64,000 nt of DNA from Phycisphaerae bacterium. Its GTDB lineage: Bacteria; Planctomycetota; Phycisphaerae; UBA1845; PWPN01. Shown here one piece after another: positions 39,167 through 61,621 of the stretch. Location of the stretch: assembly GCA_018003015.1 (NCBI GenBank), contig JAGNEZ010000003.1:124001-188000 (forward strand), given 5' to 3'. Both the position numbers and the translations under genes were made by a program. The notes beneath the pieces were generated by a model. The model was not told the DNA's origin, did no database searches, and saw only the letters and a list, made by a program, of their open reading frames with translations. How positions within the stretch are numbered: position 1 is the stretch's first letter; each line of letters opens with the position of its first letter.

Positions 39167-40255
39167 ATGGCCCGCCGACCAGTGATCTGGTTACTGCTGC
39201 AACGTTGTCGTGCTCGGAAGTCTCCGCCCCTCGGATTTACCCTTATAGAGGTACTGGTGGTCGTCGCGATCATCGCCCTCCTGATCGCGATCCTGCTCCC
39301 GTCCCTCAAGATGGCCCGGGACCAGGCCCAGGCGGCGGTGTGCGGCAGTAACATGGGTCAGGCGGTCAAGGGAGCGATCCTGCATCTGACCGAGACCAAC
39401 ATGCGTAAGGAGCGGTGGAGCACCAACTATGGTTGGGCCACCTACTCGATGAGGGCGAATGGCGGGCAGTCGGATCTGTTTGTCTGCCCGGCGGACGCCA
39501 ATCCTCGACCGACCGCCGCGGTCCTCGCCCGCGTCTGGGCGGGTTCCATCGATCGCGGGATCACTTCCGGCGATGCCATCTTCAACCACGTCTACAACGC
39601 AGGCGGTGGCGTATGGCAGACAGATGTCCAGGACTCGGTGGTGGGAGATGAGTTCGGCGGCGACGCCTTCAGCTTTACGGACATTGACCTGCTTATCGGC
39701 TACAACGTGAGTACTGCAAAGCAGAGGTTCGCCGCCGGCTATGTGGCCGAGAAGGAATCGGCCGACAATTTTGACGTGATGAGCTACAAGGGCGAACCCC
39801 TGTGGAAGATGGCCGGGGGCGGCAGCGGAAACCGCACCATCCCGATCATGTGGATGAGCCATTCGGCCAATGCCAGTTCGGGCCTCAGGAACGTCCGGGG
39901 CATCCCGGCGCTGATCGTTGAAGGCGGCAAGCCGGGTATCTTCCCGCAGCGTCTGTGGAAGAAGACCACTCCCGTCAGTGGGACGCCGGAGAGTCTGCCG
40001 GCCGCACTCCGGTTCCGCCACGGGGGCAAGAACAAGGACCCGCTCATGTCCGGTAAGGACTTCACCAAACGCGGCTCATCGCCTCCTCTGGACATGAAGT
40101 ACGAGCCCGCCACCAAGATGAACGTTGGTTTCCTGGACGGTCATGTCCAGCGAATGACCGACGATCAGCTGATGGACAAGTCGAAGGCCGGGTATCCCGC
40201 CAGGGGACCGGTTTGGTACCCCGGACAGAGGTCGGACGAGGGGTTCTTTGACTGA
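39167..40255 (+). CDS. Pseudopilin-like protein with prepilin N-terminus and H-X9-DG-type end
   Basis: This 362-residue protein has a prepilin cleavage site (PLGFTLIEVLVVVAIIALLI, residues 21-40). It has a leader of about 22 residues and a long hydrophobic alpha-1 helix, as in type IV pilins and type II secretion pseudopilins. The globular part contains FVCPADANPRP and a C-terminal MNVGFLDGHVQRMTD, the motif seen in many planctomycete prepilin-type proteins. The Cys pair at Cys59 and Cys107 may form a bond. A prepilin peptidase would be needed and is not in the window. A shortened copy lies 344 bases downstream. Confidence 0.85.
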   Translation: MARRPVIWLLLQRCRARKSPPLGFTLIEVLVVVAIIALLIAILLPSLKMARDQAQAAVCGSNMGQAVKGAILHLTETNMRKERWSTNYGWATYSMRANGGQSDLFVCPADANPRPTAAVLARVWAGSIDRGITSGDAIFNHVYNAGGGVWQTDVQDSVVGDEFGGDAFSFTDIDLLIGYNVSTAKQRFAAGYVAEKESADNFDVMSYKGEPLWKMAGGGSGNRTIPIMWMSHSANASSGLRNVRGIPALIVEGGKPGIFPQRLWKKTTPVSGTPESLPAALRFRHGGKNKDPLMSGKDFTKRGSSPPLDMKYEPATKMNVGFLDGHVQRMTDDQLMDKSKAGYPARGPVWYPGQRSDEGFFD

Positions 40256-40345
40256 CCGACCCCACCGGGGGCAGCAACCGACGTCCGAAAACTAAGCCAG
40301 AAGTCCGTTGCAGCATAGCAGGAGGGGACAGGCATCCCTGACCGA

Positions 40346-40375
40346 TTGAGTGGGGGGTAAGGGACTGACTATAAT
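40346..40375 (+). promoter_or_regulatory. Promoter of the shortened pseudopilin gene
   Basis: TTGAGT (40346-40351), 18 bases and a perfect TATAAT (40370-40375) predict a transcript start near 40382 and a leader of about 217 bases. The leader contains a hairpin: GAGAGCA at 40407-40413 pairs with TGCTCTC at 40439-40445, with CCTT/AAGG pairing inside. It is the main content of the 343-base gap between the two pseudopilin genes. Confidence 0.55.
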
Positions 40376-40598
40376 TGAATAGCCGAGAGCGGTTCTGCCC
40401 TGGATGGAGAGCACGCCCTTGCCGATGGAGGGGGAAGGTGCTCTCAACGGGCGGGGAAGCTCTCCACGGTGTTCTCCAGGCGGTTTCACGATGGCCTGAG
40501 TGGTTCTGACACCATCGCATCATCGTGTGTAACCGCGTGGCGACGTCGCAGCCGCGGATTGGCGGAGGCGATCCAGCCACGACCGAAAGGAGAGCCCT

Positions 40599-40967
40599 AT
40601 GGGTGAGCCTCTCGTTCGATCCATGCGTCGACCTCCCCGCCACCCATCCGGCTTCAGGGGACTGGGCTTCACGCTAATCGAAGTCCTGGTCGTCGTGGCC
40701 ATCATCGATCTGATGATCGGCTACAACGCCACCACCGCCAAGCAACGATTCAGCGACGGCTATGTAGCCGAGAAAGAAGCGGGCTGGCATTTCGATGTGC
40801 TCAGCTACAAGGGGGAGCTCCTGTGGCAGAACGCCGTGCCCGGTAGTGGCAACCGCGTTGTCCCCATCCTGTGGATGATCAAGGACGCCAACCCGCTCAC
40901 GGCGCCTATTCCGAACGGACAGGTCTGGTTCGGCGGCCGGCGAGGCGGCGAAGCCTCGTTCGACTGA
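40599..40967 (+). pseudogene. Pseudopilin relic with two in-frame internal deletions
   Basis: This 122-residue frame is a shortened version of the 362-residue neighbour. Residues 1-36 match the prepilin start (GLGFTLIEVLVVVAII). Residues 37-99 match 174-236 of the neighbour (DLMIGYNATTAKQRF, GYVAEKE, VLSYKGELLW). Residues 100-122 match 340-362 (GQVWFGGRRGGEASFD). So about 137 and 103 residues are missing, both without breaking the frame. The hydrophobic alpha-1 helix is cut after VVVAII and FLDGH is gone, so a normal pilin fold is impossible. It has its own promoter and a good ribosome site (AAAGGAG), so it may still be expressed. Confidence 0.7.
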
Positions 40968-50383: not shown

Positions 50384-51424
50384 ATGACAGCTCAGGTGTT
50401 TGGCATTCATCGATCACGCGGGTTTACCCGGTTGTTCCGCGGTCGGCTCGCCGGGTCAGGTGCGTTCCTCGCCGTTGGCCGCGTCGGTGCGGTCCGGCGA
50501 TGGACGATGCCTGTCGTCGCATCGACGGCATGTCTGTTGTCATTCATCGTGTCCGTACACGGGCAGAGCACAACCGATCCGGTTGAGCGTTCCATGCAAT
50601 TCATCGAGCAGTCGATGAAAGCAACGGACCTGTTCAACGAAGGGAAAGTGAAAGAAGCTTTGGCCGTTTTCAAGAAGCTCCTGGAAACAAACCCGGACCT
50701 GGACGAGGACGGCTACGTAGCTCTCTCGATCGGCGACTGTCTGGCCGTTCTGGATCGCCGGGAAGATGCCAAAGCAGCCTATGAGGCCGCGCAGGCCGCA
50801 CACTCCGACCTGGCCGGCGCAGTGGACGATCGGCTCATCGAACTGGAGTTGGCCGGCAACGTGGGTGACTCGCTACTCGACCGGCTGCGGTTTGCAGCGA
50901 CAGGCCGGAGCGAGAAGCGTTTCGTGGCCGCGTGGCAATTAGGTCGGGCACTTCAGAAGCGGGCTCAGGCCCTGCTCATCGAAGCGGCCAGCGCGTTTCG
51001 GATGGCTGCCCAACTCGATTCACCCATCCCCAAGACCGACTGGCAGGCTGACCATCTGGTGGACCTCGACGACTTGAATGATCAGATGACCGGAGCGATC
51101 GAGAGGGTCGAGAGACGGTGGGCCGAGTTGCGGCGATATCTCTCGGGCCGGCAAGGTCCCGGCGAACAGCTGCCGATCCAGCAGTCCAGCACCCAGCGGC
51201 GGCAGTATGAATGCACGCTCAGGACCGCCGGCGGCGGGCAGGTTGTCCTCCGCGGGTCGCAGGACCGGACGGACGGTGGGCCACGCTTCACCGCCAACGG
51301 GAAGCCCATCCAGTTGAACGAAGCCCAGGCGGATTTCATCCGCCGATACCAGGAGCGCATCGACCACGTTCTACTGGAGGCCGCGAACAGGAAGTCCGCC
51401 AACCAAGGAGAGCATCATGAGTAA
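50384..51424 (+). CDS. Exported TPR-like protein in ECF operon
   Basis: This 346-residue protein starts at the ATG at 50384 (GAGAGG upstream). A signal-like segment (about 40-62, MPVVASTACLLSFIVSVHGQ) follows a basic leader. TPR-like helices follow (FNEGKVKEALAVFKKLLETN, SIGDCLAVLDRREDAKAAYE). The C-terminal 100 residues are Gln/Arg-rich and charged. It lies 16 bases after the anti-sigma gene and overlaps the next gene by 8 bases, so it is part of the same operon. The role is unknown; it may sense or process an envelope substrate. Confidence 0.7.
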   Translation: MTAQVFGIHRSRGFTRLFRGRLAGSGAFLAVGRVGAVRRWTMPVVASTACLLSFIVSVHGQSTTDPVERSMQFIEQSMKATDLFNEGKVKEALAVFKKLLETNPDLDEDGYVALSIGDCLAVLDRREDAKAAYEAAQAAHSDLAGAVDDRLIELELAGNVGDSLLDRLRFAATGRSEKRFVAAWQLGRALQKRAQALLIEAASAFRMAAQLDSPIPKTDWQADHLVDLDDLNDQMTGAIERVERRWAELRRYLSGRQGPGEQLPIQQSSTQRRQYECTLRTAGGGQVVLRGSQDRTDGGPRFTANGKPIQLNEAQADFIRRYQERIDHVLLEAANRKSANQGEHHE

Positions 51425-52556
51425 GCCGTGGGGACTTGCCGGTTTCGGGATCATCGCCTTCGTCTCGACGGTGGTCGCGCTGGCCGGGGATTCGGCCCAG
51501 AGGGTGGTGTTCCGCTATCAATCCAGGCCGGGTGAAGTCGTCCGCCAGCGAATCGTTCTGCAAACGGTGGGTTCCGCCCGGATGGGCCCCAGCGAGATCA
51601 AGACCGGTCAATCGACCACCAACGAACTCAAGAGCGAGACCAAGAAGGTCAACTTGGACGGCTCGACGGAAGTCGAGGTCACGTTGGTCAACGTCAGCAT
51701 GAGTATCACCGGCAACGGGCGGCGCATGGAGTTCAACTCCAAAACGTTTGATCCGGCCAAGGAGCACGACAGGGACCTGCGCTACCTGGGGCGGTTCTTC
51801 TCCACCCTGGCCGGCAAGAAGTTTACCATGGAGTCCAGTCCGGAGGGAAAGCCCACCAAGGTGTCCGGTCTTCACGACATCATCCAGAAAGCCATCGATG
51901 AAGTCAGAAAGGACTTCGAGAAAGAGAAGGGCCGGTTCTTCGTTTCGCAGATCCTCGAGCAGGTCGCCTCGATGTTCGACGATGAGAGCGTTGGGCGCCA
52001 GATGCAGTCCTATTACCGGATGGTCCCGGAGAAACCGGGCCCGGTCCAGGTCGGGGAAACCTGGCAGAACCGATGGATCATGGACATGCCCACGCTCAAT
52101 GCCAAGTGCGAGGCGAATGGCGAGTACGAGCTGTTGGGCGTCGAGACGTTCCGCGGACGCCCATGCGCCAAGATCCGTCTCAAGGAAACGCTCCGCCTAG
52201 CCACTGAGCCGGAAGTGACCGACAACGAGAAGGCGAAGAAACCCAGGAACGCCGGCCTGCTGGGCAGCCTCATGGAGCAGATGGACTACACCATGACCAC
52301 CAGCGGGGGCGAGGGAATCGCCTATTGGGACTATCAGTCCGGCGTGCTCGTCCAACTGCGCCAGACGCAGAAGATGACCATCGAGGCCCGGATCAAGCAG
52401 GGCCCGGCTACGGCTATCACCGGCGCTTCCGGGCTGGGAACGCTGACCCAGAAGCTGAACACGTCGGTCCGTGTCGACCTGATCGAGGGCGACGAGGCGA
52501 CGACCACCGGCGCGAGCGAGTCACACCCCGGCGATTCCGCCGACAAGGCCCCATAA
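51417..52556 (+). CDS. Secreted DUF6263-like protein
   Basis: This 379-residue protein has a signal peptide (LAGFGIIAFVSTVVALAGDS). The mature part reads RVVFRYQSRPGEVVRQRIVL, then VNLDGSTEVEVTLVNVSMSI, YRMVPEKPGPVQVGETWQNR and GIAYWDYQSGVLVQLRQTQK. This is the pattern of a family of bacterial exported proteins of unknown function (DUF6263-like) with a repeated beta-strand domain. It is the last gene of the ECF sigma operon. A strong hairpin terminator lies 136 bases downstream. Confidence 0.7.
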   Translation: MSKPWGLAGFGIIAFVSTVVALAGDSAQRVVFRYQSRPGEVVRQRIVLQTVGSARMGPSEIKTGQSTTNELKSETKKVNLDGSTEVEVTLVNVSMSITGNGRRMEFNSKTFDPAKEHDRDLRYLGRFFSTLAGKKFTMESSPEGKPTKVSGLHDIIQKAIDEVRKDFEKEKGRFFVSQILEQVASMFDDESVGRQMQSYYRMVPEKPGPVQVGETWQNRWIMDMPTLNAKCEANGEYELLGVETFRGRPCAKIRLKETLRLATEPEVTDNEKAKKPRNAGLLGSLMEQMDYTMTTSGGEGIAYWDYQSGVLVQLRQTQKMTIEARIKQGPATAITGASGLGTLTQKLNTSVRVDLIEGDEATTTGASESHPGDSADKAP

Positions 52557-52691
52557 ACTCGCGATCGACAGTCGTTCTGTGGCTTACTGAAGACGCGATT
52601 GCCGGTGTTCCGGGCTTCCGACGGTTGTTTCTTGACTTCCGGTCGCTGCCCCCGAATGATCTAGTGTCTCTGGCGAATCTCTCTGATCCAA

Positions 52692-52730
52692 AAGGGCCGG
52701 CTTCAGGAAGGAGCTGGCCCTTCTCTCTTT
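52692..52730 (+). terminator. Rho-independent terminator after the ECF operon
   Basis: AAGGGCCGGCT (52692-52702) pairs with AGCTGGCCCTT (52712-52722), 11 bp with one G-T pair, around a 9-base loop. It is followed by CTCTCTTT. This is a strong candidate for termination of the operon. The right arm, loop and tail occur again at 59650-59682. Confidence 0.65.
52698..52730 (+). repeat. 33-bp direct repeat, copy 1
   Basis: The 33 bases beginning CGGCTTCAGGAAGGAG and ending CTTCTCTCTTT are identical to 59650-59682, in the same orientation. In this copy they form most of a terminator hairpin. The second copy lacks the left arm. Confidence 0.8.
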
Positions 52731-52867
52731 AAGCCTTTGTCACTACAGTACTTTCGTATACCTATAGGTCTACCTTGACCTATTCTAAGCCCTATCAGTC
52801 ACGGTCAGTGTTTAGTGGTTAGTTGGAAGTAAGAAGGGGTGAGGAATGAGCGTCGTTAGCTCTCGGC

Positions 52868-52931
52868 GGTCAGCTTTCAGCTATCAGCCAGAGGATGTGA
52901 AGCGAACCGCCAAGACGCCATGACGCGGAGG
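52868..52931 (+). repeat. Dispersed-repeat cluster: heptads and AACCGCCAAG element
   Basis: Three tandem heptads GGTCAGC, TTTCAGC, TATCAGC (52868-52888) match the (G)CTGAAA-type heptameric repeats scattered in many bacterial genomes. They are followed by AACCGCCAAGACGCCATGAC (52905-52924) plus GCGGAGG, a dispersed intergenic element known from many genomes. Both lie in a decayed segment between 52740 and 53940. Confidence 0.55.
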
Positions 52932-53012
52932 AAACGACGGCGACCAGTGAACCGAAGGCCGCGAAGAGAGCGAAGCAACACGGAGCGGGCGAACCGCGAA
53001 ACGCAGTCGGGC

Positions 53013-53495
53013 CGCCGCGTGGTGAATGGTCAGATGGGCGCGATGCGCGACCCTGAAGCCGGAGAACTCGACGGCGATCGCCGCCAGCAGAGCAGCTCGC
53101 CAGTCATGCCGGCACGCCCGGAGGAAGCGATACATGCAGCCGCCGGCGAGACCGAAGTGCAGCACCAACGTTGCAGGGTACGCGATGAGAGGTGGCAACA
53201 GCGCAAACAGCCAAGTCGGCGGATACCAAAGGCCGGCCTGTGGATCGGCGGCGATCGATGTCCCCATGGCCACCCAGGGATTCCATAGCGGCCACTCACC
53301 CGCCCGGATCTGCTCGCCAATGTACTGTCTGGTAGGAAGGTAGAAGAGGACGTCGTCTTCAATCGCGGATACCCCACCCAGCCGCCACGCGCCGGCAAGA
53401 ATCACGATCGGCAAGCCAAGCAACAGACTGCTCACCAGCAACCGGCGACTGTGATTGCTGATACCGCTACCCTCGGATGCATCTTCCACGCCCAT
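53013..53495 (-). pseudogene. N-terminal fragment of YfhO-type membrane protein
   Basis: The frame from the ATG at 53495 reads like the start of YfhO-family bacterial membrane proteins: DDVLFYLPTRQYIGEQIRAG, EWPLWNPWVAMGTSIAADPQ, LWYPPTWLFALLPPLIAYPA and FSGFRVAHRAHLTIHHAAA. Intact proteins have 700 or more residues with 12 or more helices. Here homology stops near 53013. The remaining frame is low-quality sequence derived from the neighbouring repeat element. It is a broken gene, with the 3' part lost. Confidence 0.6.
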
Positions 53496-53528
53496 GGGCA
53501 GGGATCTTCCGGCTGACGCAGGCGGCCG

Positions 53529-53635
53529 TCAAGCGTGCTCAACCGCAGGCATGAGTCGGTGTCGAAGGCGGCCCAGCTTGATGAAGTCGGTGGCCGTGTT
53601 CAGATACCGCAGAACCGAACGCGAGCGCTGGGCGA
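53529..53635 (-). pseudogene. C-terminal end of a lost gene upstream of the YfhO fragment
   Basis: The minus frame ending at 53529 reads SVLRYLNTATDFIKLGRLRH and RLMPAVEHA with GC-rich third positions, like real coding sequence. Further upstream it runs into repeat-like sequence and loses this character. It stops 33 bases before the start of the YfhO fragment. It may be the tail of an adjacent operon gene. Family unknown. Confidence 0.35.
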
Positions 53636-53686
53636 GGTGAACAGAAGAAAGCAAAGAAGAACGCGCGGTGGACCGTTTGACTGGAG

Positions 53687-53736
53687 GGATAGGATGAACA
53701 GGATTCCTCACCAGATCCTGCCCATCCTACCTATCC
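53687..53736. repeat. Imperfect inverted repeat of the GGATAGGATGAACAGGAT type
   Basis: GGATAGGATGAACAGGAT (53687-53704) and ATCCTGCCCATCCTACCTATCC (53715-53736) are imperfect complements with a 10-base loop. This kind of dispersed AGGAT-rich palindrome recurs in intergenic DNA of many bacteria. Confidence 0.55.
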
Positions 53737-53874
53737 TATTCGTTGTCTTGCCGTCGGGGTTCTGATTCTCCATCAGTGCCAGGCCGGACGAGGCGCCGGC
53801 ACCGCCCCCCTATTCTTGCGACTCCCACTATTTAGAGAATGGCCTACGACCCCTTATCCGGCCCCCCCTTATCC

Positions 53875-53908
53875 GGGCCGCAGGCGGTCCGGAGTCCGCC
53901 TGCGGCCC
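53875..53908 (-). terminator. 13-bp perfect hairpin at the 3' side of the LamG-type gene
   Basis: GGGCCGCAGGCGG (53875-53887) pairs perfectly with CCGCCTGCGGCCC (53896-53908) around an 8-base loop, 40 bases past the stop of the gene at 53948. There is no T-run. CCCCTTATCCGG occurs in tandem just before it (53850 and 53865). Confidence 0.45.
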
Positions 53909-53947
53909 ACTGGAGGGTGCTTCACTGTGCAACTGAGCCGTTGCGGC

Positions 53948-56900
53948 TTAGGGGCTGCAAGTCGCCGGCACGACGTGCACGGCCGGGCCGGTGAAGCAAT
54001 TCACGAACTCTTGCAAGTCCGTGGCGTTGATCTGCTGGTTTTGATCGCGATCGAAGCACACGCACTGGCCGGACAGGAACTCTAGCACCCCGTAGCAAGC
54101 CTGAAACGCGCCGAAGTCCACCTGGTCCACGTCGTCGTCGCCGTCCGCGTCGGCGAAAATGGCCCCGCACGGCCGCGGTAACTGGCAACCGGTGCACACC
54201 TTGACCTGATCCATCGACACCTGCGCGTGGCCATCGCCCATGTCCTGGTAGAACAGGTTGACAAACGCGCCGCCGTCGAATTCGTCGGTGATGGCCGCAT
54301 TACCCAGCGAGTTGGCGTCCCAGCCGCCGGACAGCGTACCCGGCATGGCCGTCGTCAGCCCCGGCAAGTCCCATGTGGGCGTAAACGCCGCCATCGCCGT
54401 CCCGCAGAAGACGGCCACTTCCCAGCCGCTCTGTTTGACCTTCAGCGTCGCGATCAACGGAATGGACGACGAGAGGTTTACCGGCACGGGCAACGCGAAC
54501 GTGCCGATGACCTTGATGCCGGTATCGTCGCCGAAGGCGTAGGTGGTTTTCGTCTTGTTCATGGCCATGATGCTGCCGGTCACGACCAGCGTGTCGGGAT
54601 CGGAACCGCCGTTCTGATCGTAGTAGAAGCTCACCACCAGACCGCCCGTGCTGCTGGCGAAGTAGGTGCTGGCCTCGGCGTCACGGCCGGCGCGACTGGC
54701 CGAGAACAGGCCCAGTTCCTGTGAGCAGTCCGCAAACTGCCCGCCCGGCCGATTGACCGCCGTCAGATTGTCGACGATGACGTGCGCGTCGGAGACCACC
54801 AGGGCCACGCCCACGCCGTCCGGCGTCATCACCGGGAAGTCGTCGGTGAGTCTGCCCACCAACTCGTTGCGGTCCCAGGTAAAATCCATCGTGCCTTGCG
54901 TCGTCCAGGCGTGGCCGGCTTCGCGCATCTGTACGAAATCGCCCGCGAGGTTCCAGCCCGAACCGGGGCCGACGTCATTGCGCAGCAGCGCGTTCAGATA
55001 ATCGTTGGGATCGCTCAGAGGATTGTCGCTGAAATGGTCGTTCACGTAGACGGTCGCGGTGCCATCCAACAGACGCACCGGATAATACGCCGTGCCGGCC
55101 AGCAGGCCGTCGGCCACCGCCGTCAGCGTGCCGCCGCCCGCGCGGGCCGCCGTGACGGACAGGCTCGCGCTGTTTGCGCCGGCGAGAATGGTGATCGGCG
55201 TACCCGACGTGACCGGGTTGCCGCCTAACGTGACTGCCAACGAAGAGTCGAACGTCAGCGTGACCTCCTTGCCGCCGGTCGGGGCCAGTTCGCCGTTGGG
55301 CAGCGCCACCGTCACCGCCAGGGGACCGGTCGCCGTCGGCCAGGTGAACTCGTGCCTGACCGGCGTGACGTTCATGGTCATGGTCGCGTAGTGGGCGGCG
55401 ATCTGCGCCGGCGTCAACGCACTGCTGTAGACAGCCAGTTCATCCACCTGCCCCAGCCAGTAGTTGGCGCTGGAAGCCGAAGCCGTCGAGCCGACCAGCA
55501 ACGGCGCGTTGTTGTATACGCTCGGCAAGCTGAGCGGCCCGATCCGGGCCAGCTTGCCGTCCACGTACATGGTCACCGTATCGTCGCCGGCGTCGCTGGA
55601 GGTGCCGGCGTCGAACACAAACGCCACGTGATGCCAGGCATCATCCAGCAAGTAGATCGCGGACAGGTAGCCGGCGCTGACCGGCGACCCAAAGTACACT
55701 TCGTACGCGTACGGCCAGTGCATGACCCACGAGAACCCGGTAGCACCGTCGCTGTCATCGCGCACGTTGAACAGTGTCGCCCAGGTGCCCTGCGGATAGC
55801 CGACCGCAGGCAGCCGTACCCAGGCTTCAATGGTGCCGGTGCCGTCGGTAAATGCGAAGTCCTCCGTCTGACCGCAATTCATCCAGGTGGTGCTGCTGAC
55901 GTTCAGCGCCGCGCCGCCGGTCGTCGTGCGCGGCAAAAAAGCCGTGCCGGTGCCCAGCACAGTGGCGTCATGTACCGGCGCGTTCGGGTCGTTGTCGGCG
56001 CCATTCGCCCCATCGAAACTGTAGTAACTGATCAGCGCAGGATCGGCCAGCGCGGCCGCCTTGTAGGCCGCCAACTCCGGGCTGGGCACACCCGCGACCC
56101 TGAATGTCGCCGGCAAGGGCAGATCGGGGCGGGGATCGGCATAGTCGATCGTCGCCACGAAGTCGCCCTCGGTATCGCCCATGCCCACCGCCGACACCTT
56201 GAGGGTCAGCGTGGTATCCGGCTGGTTCACGGTGATCGTGCTGCCGGCCGTCACCGGCGTATCGTCGGCCAACATCACCGCCAGCACGTTCGTGTCGTAG
56301 TCGATTCTGACGGGCTGTCCGCCCGCGCCCGGCGTCAAGTCGCTGATCACGACGTCCTGCGGACCGGCGTCTCCAGGCAGCACGAACAACCGATTCGTGG
56401 GGGACAGCGAAGGCAGCGGAGCGAAGGAACCCGCGTGCGCCTGAATCGTCGCGGCATCCAGGGCCGTGCTGTACATAGCGACTTCGTCCATCTGGCCCTG
56501 CCACAGATTCGCGCCCTCAGCACCGGTCGAGCCGATCTGGAAGGGCAGCCCGCTGGGCGTCGTCGGCAGGGGGAGGTCCGGCAGGTCGGCCAATAGATTG
56601 CCGCCCGTATACACGAGCACATGACCCGCGTTGAACACGATCGCCAGGTGCGTCCAGCCCTGCGCAACGTCGAATCCGCCCACCTCCCGATAGCCGGAAA
56701 CCAGCGAAGGCGCCAGAATGTTGTACTCGGCGTAGTGGTGGAAGTTGTAGACCACGACATACGGAGCGTTCGTCCGTACGGCGAATAGTGTCGGATAAGT
56801 CCAATAGGGTGGGAAGGTGCCCAGGTCGATCTTGACCCACGCTTCGATGGTGCCCTGGCCGCTGGTGAAGTCGAAGTCCTCGACCGGCCCGCAGGTCACC

Positions 56901-57175
56901 CAGTTGCTCCCGTCCAGGAGCAGCGCCCGCCCCTCGTTGTGCACGCCGGTGGCAAAATGCCCCCCGCTGCCGGGGGCCGTGCCGTCGTGCGGATTCACCG
57001 GCGCGTCATCCACCGTCGAATCCGCATCGAAGGTGTAGTAGCTGATGAGCGACGGCTCGCCCGTCACCAAAGCCCGATAAGCGGCGAGATCCTGAGCCGT
57101 CGCGGCCGACGCCGCCAGCCCGATTGCCGCGCTCGCCAACAGGGCCACTCCCATGCGGTGTTTGTGGTAGTGCAT
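53948..57175 (-). CDS. Large secreted LamG-type lectin protein with EF-hand tail
   Basis: This 1075-residue protein has a signal peptide (ALLASAAIGLAASAATAQ). Two LamG/concanavalin-like domains are clear: SLISYYTFDADSTVDDAPVN to QGQMDEVAMYSTALDAATI (about 42-245), and ALISYYSFDGANGADNDPNA to LGQVDELAVYSSALTPAQI (about 380-600). Each is followed by a beta-sandwich with cadherin- or Ig-like features. A third beta-rich region (about 720-980) follows. The tail has ADADGDDDVDQVDFGAFQAC and DRDQNQQINATDLQEFVNC, then FTGPAVHVVPATC. It should bind a polysaccharide at the surface. It lies in the block bracketed by the 33-bp repeat. Confidence 0.85.
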   Translation of the reverse strand: MHYHKHRMGVALLASAAIGLAASAATAQDLAAYRALVTGEPSLISYYTFDADSTVDDAPVNPHDGTAPGSGGHFATGVHNEGRALLLDGSNWVTCGPVEDFDFTSGQGTIEAWVKIDLGTFPPYWTYPTLFAVRTNAPYVVVYNFHHYAEYNILAPSLVSGYREVGGFDVAQGWTHLAIVFNAGHVLVYTGGNLLADLPDLPLPTTPSGLPFQIGSTGAEGANLWQGQMDEVAMYSTALDAATIQAHAGSFAPLPSLSPTNRLFVLPGDAGPQDVVISDLTPGAGGQPVRIDYDTNVLAVMLADDTPVTAGSTITVNQPDTTLTLKVSAVGMGDTEGDFVATIDYADPRPDLPLPATFRVAGVPSPELAAYKAAALADPALISYYSFDGANGADNDPNAPVHDATVLGTGTAFLPRTTTGGAALNVSSTTWMNCGQTEDFAFTDGTGTIEAWVRLPAVGYPQGTWATLFNVRDDSDGATGFSWVMHWPYAYEVYFGSPVSAGYLSAIYLLDDAWHHVAFVFDAGTSSDAGDDTVTMYVDGKLARIGPLSLPSVYNNAPLLVGSTASASSANYWLGQVDELAVYSSALTPAQIAAHYATMTMNVTPVRHEFTWPTATGPLAVTVALPNGELAPTGGKEVTLTFDSSLAVTLGGNPVTSGTPITILAGANSASLSVTAARAGGGTLTAVADGLLAGTAYYPVRLLDGTATVYVNDHFSDNPLSDPNDYLNALLRNDVGPGSGWNLAGDFVQMREAGHAWTTQGTMDFTWDRNELVGRLTDDFPVMTPDGVGVALVVSDAHVIVDNLTAVNRPGGQFADCSQELGLFSASRAGRDAEASTYFASSTGGLVVSFYYDQNGGSDPDTLVVTGSIMAMNKTKTTYAFGDDTGIKVIGTFALPVPVNLSSSIPLIATLKVKQSGWEVAVFCGTAMAAFTPTWDLPGLTTAMPGTLSGGWDANSLGNAAITDEFDGGAFVNLFYQDMGDGHAQVSMDQVKVCTGCQLPRPCGAIFADADGDDDVDQVDFGAFQACYGVLEFLSGQCVCFDRDQNQQINATDLQEFVNCFTGPAVHVVPATCSP

Positions 57176-57202
57176 TCGATCGTTCCTCCGAAATGAAGTG
57201 AA

Positions 57203-58258
57203 TCAGTCTAACCCCTCGGTCATGCGAACGAGCCTGCGTCTGCCGATAACCCGACGCTTCCTCCTGCCCGCGCCGCAGTGATCCGTGTGCGCCCGGTCAT
57301 CCGCCTCGCCCCGCATCGGGGGCCGCGGGTTGTCCAGCACGTGACTGCTAGGGCTGAAACCCCAGAAGGTAGAAGAAACGCCCGTGTTTCCACGGGCGTT
57401 TTGGGGGCGCAGCGTTGACGGGGTCAGGGCTTGATGGCCGCGGCGACGGCACAGCAGCGCCAGGCCGCCCAGGCCCAGCAGCGCCAGCGAGGCCGGCTCC
57501 GGGACCACCGTTTGTATGCCATTGAACCACGTCTGGGCCATCAGATCGTAGCCGGCCTCGTTGGGGTGATTGATGCCGTTGGAAAACAGCGACTGATCGA
57601 TCGTACCCAGGTAGTCCGGGTTGGTCAGGAAATTGACATACTGATCGACCATCGTGACGTTCTTGCCCAGCGACTGGTAGCTCGGCACCAGCGTGTTGCG
57701 GATGTAGTTGTTGTAGCTGATGACCGAGGAATTGTACGTGTACATGGGGATGATCTGGGCGACGATCAGTTGAGCATCGGGCTTGTTGGTCACGATGGTG
57801 TTGACCAGCGTGTTCAGCCCGGTGGTGTCCTGGCCGTTCGTGCCGATCATGAGCAGGACGATGTCCGGATCGTCGGCTGCCAGCCAATTGACGATGCCGC
57901 CCTGCAACGTGCCGGCCGAGGCGCCGCCATACCCGCGGTGGCCGTCCTGGCCCAAGTCCCGGAGATCCAGCGACGGCTTGTAGGTCCCGCCGTGCGTTGG
58001 GTCACCGAATGCCTTGTTCCACGGCTCCGCCGAACCGCCGACGAACTTGAAGTTGTAGCCGGCGTTCGTCAGCCGCGTGTACAGGCCGCTGCGATAACCA
58101 AACTCGAACGGGTGGTTGGCCCACGAGGGGTTGTCTGTGTAACCCGCGGTAATCGAATCGCCCAGCGGCATGATGCGGATCGGATCCGCGGCGGAGGCGG
58201 GCGTGGCGAGGGACAGCGCCACGATCGCGCCAAAGGCGAAGATGTTTCTAAAACACAT
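57203..58258 (-). CDS. PEP-CTERM SGNH/GDSL hydrolase with lost stop codon
   Basis: Read from the ATG at 58258 (AAGGAG upstream), the protein has a signal peptide (MCFRNIFAFGAIVALSLATP). It has SGNH motifs: IMPLGDSITAGYT (block I Ser), a Gly in YGGASAGTLQGG, MIGTNGQD (block III Asn) and NHPNEAGY (block V His). It therefore hydrolyses an ester, perhaps an acetylated glycan. A PEP-CTERM signal follows (VPEPASLALLGLG, ALLCRRRG), which should be the end. Instead 80 more residues continue through a perfect hairpin terminator at 57376-57401. A TGA lies at 57424-57426 in the neighbouring frame, so a single-base indel most likely removed the stop. Confidence 0.8.
   Translation of the reverse strand: MCFRNIFAFGAIVALSLATPASAADPIRIMPLGDSITAGYTDNPSWANHPFEFGYRSGLYTRLTNAGYNFKFVGGSAEPWNKAFGDPTHGGTYKPSLDLRDLGQDGHRGYGGASAGTLQGGIVNWLAADDPDIVLLMIGTNGQDTTGLNTLVNTIVTNKPDAQLIVAQIIPMYTYNSSVISYNNYIRNTLVPSYQSLGKNVTMVDQYVNFLTNPDYLGTIDQSLFSNGINHPNEAGYDLMAQTWFNGIQTVVPEPASLALLGLGGLALLCRRRGHQALTPSTLRPQNARGNTGVSSTFWGFSPSSHVLDNPRPPMRGEADDRAHTDHCGAGRRKRRVIGRRRLVRMTEGLD
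57376..57401 (-). terminator. Perfect 11-bp terminator hairpin inside the hydrolase reading frame
   Basis: On the minus strand AAACGCCCGTG, a GAAA tetraloop and CACGGGCGTTT are followed by CTTCT. The stem is perfect (plus coordinates 57376-57386 with 57391-57401). It lies 22 bases past the out-of-frame TGA at 57424-57426. Confidence 0.75.
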
Positions 58259-58343
58259 CACAAGAAGGACTCCTTGCATTGCCGGGAGTGAGTTCCGCAA
58301 ATGCGTGTCTGACTCACGCCTGGATCAGCCTGCAATACGACGC

Positions 58344-59123
58344 TCATCTCCGGCGACGAAGGACGACCAGGCTCGCCAGTCCCAGCAGCGCCATGGTGGT
58401 CGGCTCGGGAGTCGGAGTTCCGAAGACATCGACCTCACGTATCACCGAGCCGGCCCCCCAGGTGTTGCCGGTGGTTTCCAGGAAGGCGAACTTGATGGCC
58501 ACGACGCCGCTGGCAAGGACGCCGGTGGTATCGGTCACGTTCACCTTCGTGGAACCACCTTCAGTCTGTGCCTCGGAAAACGGCTGATAGTCGACCGTTG
58601 CCAGTTGGGTGAAGTCAGATTCGCCCAGGTACTTCACCAGGACGTTGTACTTCTGGTTGGAAAACCCTGCACCCTGCCAGGCGGCGATCGACTGGATTTC
58701 GGTGATGTCGTATCCCTGGCCCGTGCCCTCGCCAAGAGCGAACTCGCTCCAGGAGAGACCGTCCTTCCAGAGCCACGCCGTGCCGTCGAGAGCAGAGTAA
58801 CTGACCAAGTCGAAGTCTCCGCCGGCGTTGCCGTCATTCAGTCCCTCAGGACGCATCCCGAAACCGTCTATTAGCATATATGGGCCGTGCGTGGCTATGA
58901 CACCGGGCTGTTGCAGAAGGTCGTTGTTGCTGACGTCGGCCGCATAGTACACTTCGTCGTCCGTGGTGGATGGGTCGAACGGCCCGTAGGCATTCGGCGT
59001 TATCATCACCGCCGCCAAGGCCGGTGAGATGACCACTGCAAGCACGGCCAACACCGCGACTGCGGCGGACGGCCTGGTTGCCAAGATGCCAAACAGGGAA
59101 TTCGTGCTTTCCTTTCGAGTCAT
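58344..59123 (-). CDS. PEP-CTERM surface protein
   Basis: This 259-residue protein is read from the ATG at 59123, with GAGGAG upstream. It has a signal peptide (VAVLAVLAVVISPALA). It ends with a PEP-CTERM signal: TPEPTTMALLGLASLVVLRR. The mature domain (DEVYYAADVSNNDLLQQPGV, TEIQSIAAWQGAGFSNQKYN, FAFLETTGNTWGAGSVIREV) looks like a jelly-roll or discoidin-like binding domain. It is presumably anchored by an exosortase-type enzyme. It precedes the SGNH hydrolase on the same strand with 85 bases between them, so co-transcription is possible. Confidence 0.85.
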   Translation of the reverse strand: MTRKESTNSLFGILATRPSAAVAVLAVLAVVISPALAAVMITPNAYGPFDPSTTDDEVYYAADVSNNDLLQQPGVIATHGPYMLIDGFGMRPEGLNDGNAGGDFDLVSYSALDGTAWLWKDGLSWSEFALGEGTGQGYDITEIQSIAAWQGAGFSNQKYNVLVKYLGESDFTQLATVDYQPFSEAQTEGGSTKVNVTDTTGVLASGVVAIKFAFLETTGNTWGAGSVIREVDVFGTPTPEPTTMALLGLASLVVLRRRR

Positions 59124-59654
59124 TGCATTTCTCCTCAACAAGTAGTTTGAGACTCCGAACTCCTCCGAGCTCAACAGATAGAAGAACCGCGACTCGCCCT
59201 CTCGCAGGGCGAGACCGATACGCTGGAGAGCCGGTTCAAGGCCCTATCATGCTTTCTCGAGCCGATACTCTCCTGCAAAATTAGCGGAGGGGACCCGTTC
59301 AGACGCAGGATGTCCCGCGCAGGCCAAGCCCACCTGCATGCTTCCTGAGGTTTTGCGGCCGGTACGCCGCCGGAGGGGCGAATGATCGCGGTCTGACGAT
59401 CGTTCGGGGCGGCATGGAGACCCGGCCAACGCGCGGCTGTCAAGTACCTGGCCAAGCCCGAGGACCGCACTTTCACCCTCCTGCTACGAATTCCCTCTCC
59501 CTAGATTGAACGCTGATCCGCTGATCCAGCATCCCCATCTTAAAGCGGCGAGGAGGGAACATCAATCACAAATGCCCATTGTTTTGCGACATGTCGCCGG
59601 TGGGCATCATCTGGGAAAACGCGTTTTCGATAGCAAAAATGAGGTGTGTCGGCT
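59124..59654. other. Intergenic region containing the second 33-bp repeat
   Basis: About 530 bases with no supported gene. It ends at the repeat copy at 59650-59682. GC-content drops near 59570-59650. Confidence 0.4.
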
Positions 59655-59682
59655 TCAGGAAGGAGCTGGCCCTTCTCTCTTT
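59650..59682 (+). repeat. 33-bp direct repeat, copy 2
   Basis: Identical to 52698-52730 and in the same orientation. The left arm of the terminator stem is missing, so no strong hairpin forms. On the minus strand the repeat supplies the last residues (KREGPAPS) of the small membrane protein at 59655. Confidence 0.8.
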
Positions 59683-59843
59683 TCTGGAATGCGCCCTGCC
59701 GTCCCGACGCGACTCTCCCGCCGGTGCCAGAGGAAGAGGCCCAGTGCGGTGGCCACGACACCGAACATGACGAGCGGCCAGGGCGGTGAACCCAGGCGCA
59801 CAAGATGGCCCGCGTCACCGGCCATGAGCAGGATCTTTAGCAT
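59655..59843 (-). CDS. Possible 62-residue membrane protein
   Basis: A minus-strand frame from the ATG at 59843 encodes MLKILLMAGDAGHLVRLGSP with a hydrophobic helix (PLVMFGVVATALGLFLWHRR). A weak AGAGAGGGA lies upstream. Its C-terminus is made from the repeat copy. It is 59 bases downstream of polX on the same strand. It could be real or chance. Confidence 0.35.
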   Translation of the reverse strand: MLKILLMAGDAGHLVRLGSPPWPLVMFGVVATALGLFLWHRRESRVGTAGRIPEKREGPAPS

Positions 59844-59902
59844 GCGCGTCGTCGTCCCTCTCTGTTGCCGGGCAGAGCCGCGGTGGCGGAGGGGTGACGC
59901 GG

Positions 59903-61621
59903 TCACTGACGCTTGGCTGCAATCCACTTCTTGAGCTTGGCCAGCGGCCAGGTGTTGACCACATCCTCGGCCGTGGCCCAACCTCGGCGGGCGGTCACAA
60001 TGCCGAGCATGAGCTGGTCGAGCTGATCGGTATCGTGGGCATCGGTGTCGATGCACACACGGCAGCCGGCTTTGATCGCCTGACGGATGTGGACATCCTT
60101 GAGATCCAAACGTTGCCAGGAGGCACTGACTTCCAGGGCCGTGCCGGTCTTGGCCGCGGCCTTGAACACTGCATCCCATTCCAGATCCATCGCATCGCGG
60201 CGACCGAGCAGCCGGCCGGAGGGATGACCGATCACATTCACGTGGGGGTTTTCCATGGCCGCGATGGTGCGGGCGGTGACCCTGGCCCGATCCTGGCCCT
60301 GGGCAGCGTGAATGCTGGCGATCACCCAATCGAGTTGGATAAGCAGCTCGTCGGGGTAGTCCAGTGTGCCGTCGGAGAGGATATCACACTCGATACCCGC
60401 TAGAACGGTGATTCCTTCCACCTTGCCGTCGGCCGCACGGATCCGCTTGATGTGCCGCCTGAGATCCTCGATCGACAGGCCGCCGGCGATGGCCGAGCTT
60501 CGCGAGTGCTCGGTGACGGCAATGTAGCTGTAGCCGCGCTCCTTGGCCGCCTTGGCCATCTCCTCGACGCTGCACCGGCCGTCGCTGGCGGTGGTGTGCA
60601 TGTGCAGGTCGCCGCGGATGTCGGCCAGCTCGATCAGCTTGGGCAGCTCGGCGTCAAGCTCGCCGCGATCTTCGCGAAGCTCGGGCGGAATGAACGGCAG
60701 ACCGAGCTTGGCATAGATCTCCGCCTCCTCCTTGCCTGCGATCAGCTTCTCGCCCTTGAACAGGCCATACTCGTTGAGCTTGAAGCCCTTCTTGATGGCG
60801 ATCTCGCGAAGCCGGACGTTGTGCTCCTTCGAGCCGGTGAAGTACTGCAGGGCGGCGCCGAAGGACTCGGTCGGCAGAACCCGCAGATCGACCTGAATCT
60901 CTCCTCCTTCCGAACTGGCTACGAGGATCGACGCCTTGGTATCGCCTGAGGCGCGCACGCCGCTCACCTCCGGCAGCTTGGTGAACGCGTCGATGACCGC
61001 TTGGAGGTCGGCCGCCTCGCAGAGCAGGTCGATATCGCCCAGGGTCTCCTTGCCTCGCCTCAGCGAGCCGGCCGGTATGACCCTTTTCACGCCTGGCAAG
61101 GCGGCGACCCGACTCCGAAGCGATTCGGCGATCGCATACCCGACGCCCAGCGGTGTTCGCCCGGCCGAGCGGGCCAGGAACTCGATGCCCTCCTGAATCT
61201 TGGCGATGCTCTTGGTCCCGAAGCCGGACAACTGCTCGACTTTGCCCGCGGCGATGGCCGCCTGCAGGTCCTCGATACTCCCAACGCCCAACTCGTGGTA
61301 AAGGGCCCCGACCTTCTTGGGACCGAGGCCGGGGATACTCATCACTTTCAGAAGCCCGGCGGGCAACGAGGCCATCAGCTCTTCGTGGAGCGTGATCCGC
61401 CCCTCGGCCAGGAACTGGCGAATGCGTTCGGCGGTGCTCTTGCCAATCCCTGGAACGGTCTCCAAGTCATCTCGCTCGGCCAGTGCCGCGATGTCCTCGG
61501 TTAGGTCGTCGATGGCCCTGGCCGCCCGGCGGTAGGAGTTGATCCGAAAGCGATCCTCCCCTTTGATCTCTAGGAGATCCGCTATCTGCTCGAATCGCTT
61601 GACAAGTTCCGCATTGAGCAT
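59903..61621 (-). CDS. polX: DNA polymerase X family protein with PHP domain (PolX)
   Basis: This 572-residue protein has N-terminal helix-hairpin-helix units ([40 protein letters not shown]) and a polymerase beta-like core ([20 protein letters not shown], with the catalytic Asp residues). A C-terminal PHP nuclease domain follows ([58 protein letters not shown]). Bacterial PolX fills gaps in base-excision repair, and its PHP domain has 3'-5' exonuclease activity. Length is normal. A minus-strand TATAAT (61676-61671) about 50 bases upstream may be its -10. It does not depend on its neighbours. Confidence 0.95.

What the first reader, a model, noticed from the sequence alone, without database searches (positions are those of the whole stretch)
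52698..59682. 33-bp identical direct repeat brackets a 7-kb accessory block
Seen: 52698-52730 and 59650-59682 are identical and co-oriented. Between them lie the decayed segment and three surface-protein genes; core genes follow outside. One copy is a terminator arm, the other has lost its partner arm. Inference: an insertion or recombination duplicated the terminator, or the repeat is a dispersed element.
Basis: partly seen in the sequence, partly recalled or inferred. Interest (0 to 1): 0.55.

Follow-up and report, generated by a model that had tools for sequence, protein, structure and literature searches.

The report
Recent 7-kb insertion inside a terminator
One Planctomycetota lineage appears to have gained a 7-kb block of surface-protein genes inside a transcription terminator, with 33 bases of the terminator copied to the far side; its closest available relative still has the uninterrupted site, so this looks like a clear but fairly ordinary genomic insertion.

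Summary
The two 33-bp copies (52698-52730, 59650-59682) are identical, co-oriented and the only two in the genome with up to 3 mismatches. The one same-genus genome held, G001 (MAG RA.bin145), has the uninterrupted site with a single copy, and the two flank alignments overlap on exactly those 33 bp: insert 6,919 bp plus one copy. In G001 the site is a strong hairpin between convergent genes, terminator-like for gene A. In the window the left copy keeps the whole hairpin, the right copy only its 3' part. Identical copies against 10% flank divergence favour insertion here after the split over deletion in G001 (P 0.026 under neutrality). The block is a mosaic: a truncated membrane-protein gene, a LamG gene that G001 carries elsewhere at 93% identity, and two PEP-CTERM genes with only short DNA matches in G001. 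No integrase, transposase or inverted ends were found in the block, and no Ku match in either genome. Insertion with target duplication is well supported by one relative. The agent is unknown; att-like recombination by an enzyme not encoded in the block is my first guess.

The parts
51417..52556 (+). DUF6263 protein gene (gene A), left flank, 95% protein identity in G001
52692..52722 (+). Intact 13-pair hairpin, terminator-like for gene A
   Evidence: same hairpin in G001
52698..52730 (+). Left copy of the 33-bp repeat (3' part of the terminator and its tail)
52731..53864 (.). Left, decayed part of the insert; outside 53010-53536 only short or weak matches in G000 and G001
53010..53536 (-). 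Truncated 5' piece of a large membrane-protein gene; 76% to a 956-aa open gene at G000:C23 and 78% to G001:C10
53865..57348 (-). Segment present in G001 at another place (C20:565-4045), 93.2% identity
53948..57175 (-). LamG-domain (Laminin_G_3) protein gene, 1075 aa
57203..58300 (-). GDSL/SGNH hydrolase ORF with PEP-CTERM; the frame runs 78 residues past the PEP-CTERM match and over the 57348/57349 seam
58344..59174 (-). PEP-CTERM protein ORF
59650..59682 (+). Right copy of the 33-bp repeat: only the 3' part of the hairpin
59903..61621 (-). PolX/PHP-family DNA polymerase gene, right flank, 94% identical in G001

Best explanation
After the window's lineage split from G001, a single event put 6,919 bp of DNA into the terminator hairpin between two convergent genes and left a 33-bp direct duplication of the target. 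Shown: the exact empty site with one copy in G001. Inferred: direction and time. The insert is a mosaic, at least half of it (the LamG segment) genus-native, and no recombinase was found in it. The left junction keeps the whole hairpin, so gene A is still terminated; the right junction keeps only its 3' part, so polX transcripts may run on into the three surface genes on the same strand (inferred, weakly supported). First guess for the agent (inferred, about 40% within this explanation): site-specific, att-like recombination at the hairpin by a recombinase supplied in trans or lost.
For: Empty site in G001 with one copy; flank alignments overlap by exactly the 33 bp. Only 2 copies in the genome. 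Of 11 one-sided indels of 100 bp or more tested, the other 10 have end repeats of at most 10 exact bp. Both copies share T where G001 has C and are identical, although the intergenic flanks differ at 37 of 360 sites; 3.65 differences would be expected had both existed since the split, P 0.026. LamG lies elsewhere in G001 and is as diverged (dS 0.157) as gene A (0.128) and polX (0.211). In G001 the hairpin folds at -27.2 (gene A strand, z -3.0) and -26.3 (polX strand, z -3.5); the right copy read from polX folds at -12.9 (z +1.0), and no terminator-like site was listed on the - strand between 59174 and 59903. For att-like recombination: a 30-bp repeat of the tmRNA 3' end brackets a 12.5-kb block on the same contig that also holds no Phage_integrase match (none of the 15 in G000 lies on C3); an integrase-bearing element sits in a tRNA-Met gene of G001 with a 38-bp repeat and a single site in G000.
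Against: Only one relative shows the empty site; the next loci (23-44% protein identity for gene A) have no polX in the flanks held, so there is no outgroup. No recombinase or remnant found in the block. The 33-mer is not a tRNA or tmRNA end. Both genomes are drafts (144 and 90 contigs; estimated contamination 3.4% and 6%), and no reads could be checked. The neutral argument is weak if the hairpin is conserved or the copies convert each other. The geometry fits a plain target duplication equally well. In G001 the terminator scan lists the hairpin on gene A's strand only, not on polX's strand, so the polX-terminator-loss inference is weak; terminator-like sites in 52300-60000 are no more common than in shuffles (6 against 4.9, sd 1.8). 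The tmRNA block is not a clean empty-site case: the G001 alignment runs 127 bp past the left repeat and G001 has 4.8 kb of other DNA there.
Confidence: 0.8

Rival explanations
1. The block is ancestral, bracketed by the two repeats, and G001 lost it by recombination or slippage between the 33-bp repeats, leaving one copy.
For: The sequence left behind would look the same as an empty site; no outgroup fixes the direction.
Against: It needs an earlier event to make the second, half-hairpin copy; the copies would have to stay identical through the whole branch (P 0.026 under neutrality); the LamG segment is at another place in G001.
Confidence: 0.12
2. Same insertion, other agent: capture of a DNA fragment at a staggered break, or replication template switching at the hairpin, with 33 bp filled in or re-copied; no site specificity and no dedicated enzyme. 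(Its odds overlap those of the main explanation, which covers the insertion whatever the agent.)
For: Mosaic content without mobility genes found, no inverted ends, a hairpin at the site.
Against: No Ku match in G000 or G001 (0 of 2; of 14 control genomes only B. subtilis rings), so Ku-dependent end joining is unlikely. Copying from elsewhere in the genome should leave the template, but no second near-identical copy was reported in G000 (best 4 of 216 candidates scored, 37 of 89 scored for the right part).
Confidence: 0.35
3. Transposition with an unusually long target duplication, as reported for IS1549 and IS1634 (8-514 bp).
For: Such long duplications are reported (passages of PMC2266710).
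Against: No transposase domain found; no terminal inverted repeats in the outer 120 bp: best local score 8 against a shuffled mean of 8.5, maximum 16.
Confidence: 0.06
4. Assembly error joining unrelated contigs at a shared 33-mer.
For: Draft, fragmented genome.
Against: A linear mis-join does not give repeat-block-repeat with both flanks correct; the LamG part is at the genome's own divergence from G001; flanks are collinear with G001.
Confidence: 0.04

Closest known systems
Integrase-type genomic islands at tmRNA (I23/I44/I55 of P. fluorescens SBW25, PMC12595487, passages seen)
   Same: Block absent from a relative, flanking exact direct repeats, target left whole at one end
   Different: No integrase found, target is a protein gene's terminator, repeat 33 bp (14 bp in that paper), cargo is surface proteins
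IS1549/IS1634-type transposition with long direct repeats (PMC2266710, passages seen)
   Same: Long direct repeats made on insertion
   Different: No transposase found, no inverted ends, insert 6.9 kb
tmRNA block of the same contig, G000:C3:201650-214235
   Same: 30-bp exact repeat, whole gene at one end and 3' fragment at the other, no Phage_integrase match
   Different: Sits in tmRNA; G001 has other DNA at the site rather than a clean empty site

Membership tests
Integrase-mediated genomic island | Present in one genome, uninterrupted site in a relative | tested here: met
   (1 relative)
Integrase-mediated genomic island | Flanking exact direct repeats (att core) | tested here: met
Integrase-mediated genomic island | Encodes an integrase or a recognisable remnant | tested here: not met
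Integrase-mediated genomic island | Targets a tRNA, tmRNA or gene 3' end | tested here: inconclusive
   gene 3' terminator; no tRNA or tmRNA in the window
Integrase-mediated genomic island | Anomalous composition | tested here: inconclusive
   1.8% of 282 overlapping same-size windows of C3 and C23 are as far from the background; the LamG part (0.3% of 584) drives it, the other two parts are ordinary (32% of 597, 55% of 591)
Transposon / insertion sequence | Transposase | tested here: not met
Transposon / insertion sequence | Terminal inverted repeats | tested here: not met
   outer 120 bp compared
Dispersed repeat element (33-mer) | Many copies in the genome | tested here: not met
   2 copies
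Integron cassette array | attC sites and an IntI integrase | not tested
   attC folds and IntI were not searched for as such; no Phage_integrase match lies on contig C3

The most novel reading that the evidence does not exclude
Terminator hairpins between convergent genes act as att-like sites in this genus, at which recombinases acting in trans place recombinase-less blocks of PEP-CTERM surface genes, and the half hairpin left behind couples the cargo to the neighbouring gene's transcription. (Lowered from 0.1 to 0.08 after one search gave no terminator-like site on polX's strand in G001.)
Probability: 0.08. Interest if true: 0.55.

Novelty: new member of a known kind. Interest (0 to 1): 0.3.

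Why it matters
It is a base-exact insertion, datable against one relative, in a little-studied bacterial group; it shows surface-protein genes changing place and an insertion splitting a terminator hairpin. If the hairpin proved to be a recurring site, it would point to a way of moving genes without a carried enzyme. As it stands it is one case with one relative.

Tried and rejected
Dispersed repeat: rejected, 2 copies genome-wide. Rfam in 52500-59950: no match up to E 0.5. Plasmid, phage and viral sources: no match for 52600-59750 in the plasmid and phage collections (distant blastn, E 1e-5); no exact match of the 33-mer (T or C at the variable base) in viral contigs; for the hydrolase 1 viral stretch matched a pattern but encoded no relative. 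The LamG and second PEP-CTERM proteins were not scanned against viral contigs. Outgroup order: polX was sought in loci L005-L015; it was found only in L006 (G001). Flanks are about 1.5 kb, shorter where a contig ends; L013 and L015 gave no gene A match in that run. Two 27-bp overlaps at other indels (C3 63.6k, 65.9k) looked like long repeats but have longest exact matches of 6 and 10 bp. The synteny rows were filtered at over 82% identity. Two-sided replacements there (near C3 9.1k, 13k, 55-58.6k, 71.4k and the tmRNA block) were left out of the 11 indels; indels under 100 bp were not examined. An IUPAC motif seen in the decayed segment is not enriched in the window (2 found, 1.08 expected). 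Paper searches: listings seen, plus passages of PMC12595487 and PMC2266710; no listed title was recognisably this case, and I make no claim that nothing is in print.
Full report
WHAT WAS CHECKED. The 33-bp sequence at 52698-52730 and 59650-59682 is identical and co-oriented. The window is G000:C3:124001-188000. In the whole genome (6,858,904 bases, 144 contigs) the 33-mer occurs twice with up to 3 mismatches, both times here; the reversed control has none. In contig C3 there are 20 exact direct-repeat pairs of 20 bp or more within 20 kb; 3 reach 30 bp: this pair and two pairs at a tmRNA island. In the other contigs examined, pairs of 30 bp or more number 1 in G000:C23, 3 in G001:C10, 1 in G001:C6 and 0 in G001:C18.

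EMPTY SITE. The only same-genus genome held, G001, has polX and gene A next to each other. In the alignment with its contig C18, one piece ends at window 52730 (C18:60149) and the next begins at 59650 (C18:60181). They overlap in G001 by exactly the 33 bp, so G001 has one copy and nothing between. The event is 6,919 bp plus one 33-bp copy; around it the two genomes are collinear, mostly at 93-94%.

HOW UNUSUAL. I compared G000:C3 with G001:C6 and C18 (about 190 kb aligned over a 215-kb span, rows over 82% identity). Of 11 one-sided indels of at least 100 bp, this one has a 33-bp exact repeat at its ends and the other 10 have at most 10 bp. Two-sided replacements were not counted.

DIRECTION. 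A deletion in G001 between pre-existing repeats would leave the same sequence. Three points favour insertion. (1) In G001 the site is a complete hairpin; the right-hand copy in the window is a half hairpin, as a duplication of part of the target would give. (2) The intergenic flanks differ at 37 of 360 sites (JC 0.11), so two copies present since the split should differ at about 3.65 sites; they differ at none (P 0.026, neutral assumption). (3) The LamG segment lies at another place in G001. There is no outgroup: in none of the 9 loci from other genera (L007-L015) was polX found in the flank held.

WHAT THE INSERT IS. 52731-53864: 53010-53536 is a truncated 5' piece of a membrane-protein gene whose 956-aa open relative is at G000:C23 (76%), with a 78% match at G001:C10; the rest has only short or weak matches. 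53865-57348 carries a LamG gene and is 93.2% identical to G001:C20:565-4045, with dS 0.157 against 0.128 for gene A and 0.211 for polX, so it looks as old as the split. In G001 it sits near a contig end, beside Rhs-like sequence (my reading) and a tRNA-Met gene carrying an integrase-bearing element with 38-bp repeats. That integrase scores below Pfam's cut-off (23.4 against 27.1 bits) but matches a PHROGs integrase family at 5e-22. The counterpart of that tRNA locus in G000 (C38) has a single tRNA-Met and no LamG segment upstream. 57349-59649 carries a GDSL/SGNH hydrolase with PEP-CTERM and a PEP-CTERM protein; its matches in G001 are 40-68 bp long (6 matches, 37 of 85 candidates scored). The hydrolase frame runs 78 residues past its PEP-CTERM match and over the seam at 57348/57349, so the seam looks like a join. 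Tetranucleotide usage of the whole insert is in the extreme 1.8% of windows, driven by the LamG part.

NO MOBILITY GENES FOUND. Pfam scans of the genes and of open frames in the left and right noncoding parts show no integrase or transposase; PHROGs gives none for the four ORFs scanned (the LamG protein matches a virion-protein family over its second lectin domain). The outer 120 bp have no inverted repeat. The genome has 15 Phage_integrase matches, none on this contig. Ku was not found in either genome.

CONSEQUENCE. In G001 the hairpin folds at -27.2 (gene A strand, z -3.0) and -26.3 kcal/mol (polX strand, z -3.5), but the terminator scan lists it on gene A's strand only, so that it also ends polX transcripts is a guess. 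In the window the left site keeps the hairpin for gene A (-24.1, z -2.0); on the polX strand the right copy folds at only -12.9 (z +1.0), and no terminator-like site was listed on the - strand between the first block gene and polX. All three block genes lie on the polX strand, so readthrough from polX is possible; this is inference.

MECHANISM. Shown: one block, one empty site, 33 bp duplicated. Inferred: direction and time. Unknown: agent. Att-like recombination by an enzyme outside the block is my first guess, because the tmRNA block (30 bp) and the tRNA-Met element (38 bp) have repeats of similar length, and the tmRNA block also lacks a Phage_integrase match. Plain capture with target duplication is nearly as likely; Ku-dependent end joining is disfavoured. 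Transposition with long repeats as in IS1549/IS1634 (8-514 bp, passages of PMC2266710) lacks its enzyme and ends. tmRNA islands with direct repeats and an integrase are described in PMC12595487 (passages).

VERDICT. A real, apparently recent, exact insertion of an ordinary kind with an unidentified agent.

Noticed in passing
G000:C3:201650-201679 and 214206-214235 (L019, L077; outside the window): A 30-bp exact direct repeat of the tmRNA 3' end brackets a 12.5-kb block with kinase/WD40-like, sigma-factor-like and IS-like ORFs (my reading of the translations) and no Phage_integrase match; G001:C18 has one tmRNA end and 4.8 kb of other DNA.
   Followed up: partly
L041:5223-5260 and L105:2552-2589 (G001:C20:5223 and 17552): A 38-bp exact repeat of tRNA-Met brackets a 12-kb element with a tyrosine integrase in G001; G000:C38 has the single tRNA-Met site.
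   Followed up: partly
window 57203-57470: The hydrolase ORF reads 78 residues past its PEP-CTERM match, through an inverted repeat at about 57378-57406 (my reading; not listed), into the LamG upstream DNA; its stop codon may have been lost at the seam.
   Followed up: no
window 39230-40880; G001:C18:72008-72895: A local region where G001 has two extra pieces of about 0.3-0.4 kb and where parts of the window match twice (71-74%): copy-number change of a local repeat.
   Followed up: no
G001:C6:141399-143094: A 1.7-kb insertion in G001 relative to G000:C3:117102-117112; longest exact repeat near its ends 8 bp.
   Followed up: no
window 52905-52930: A 26-bp stretch of the decayed segment has one 96% match elsewhere in the genome, G000:C32:30008-30033.
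   Followed up: no
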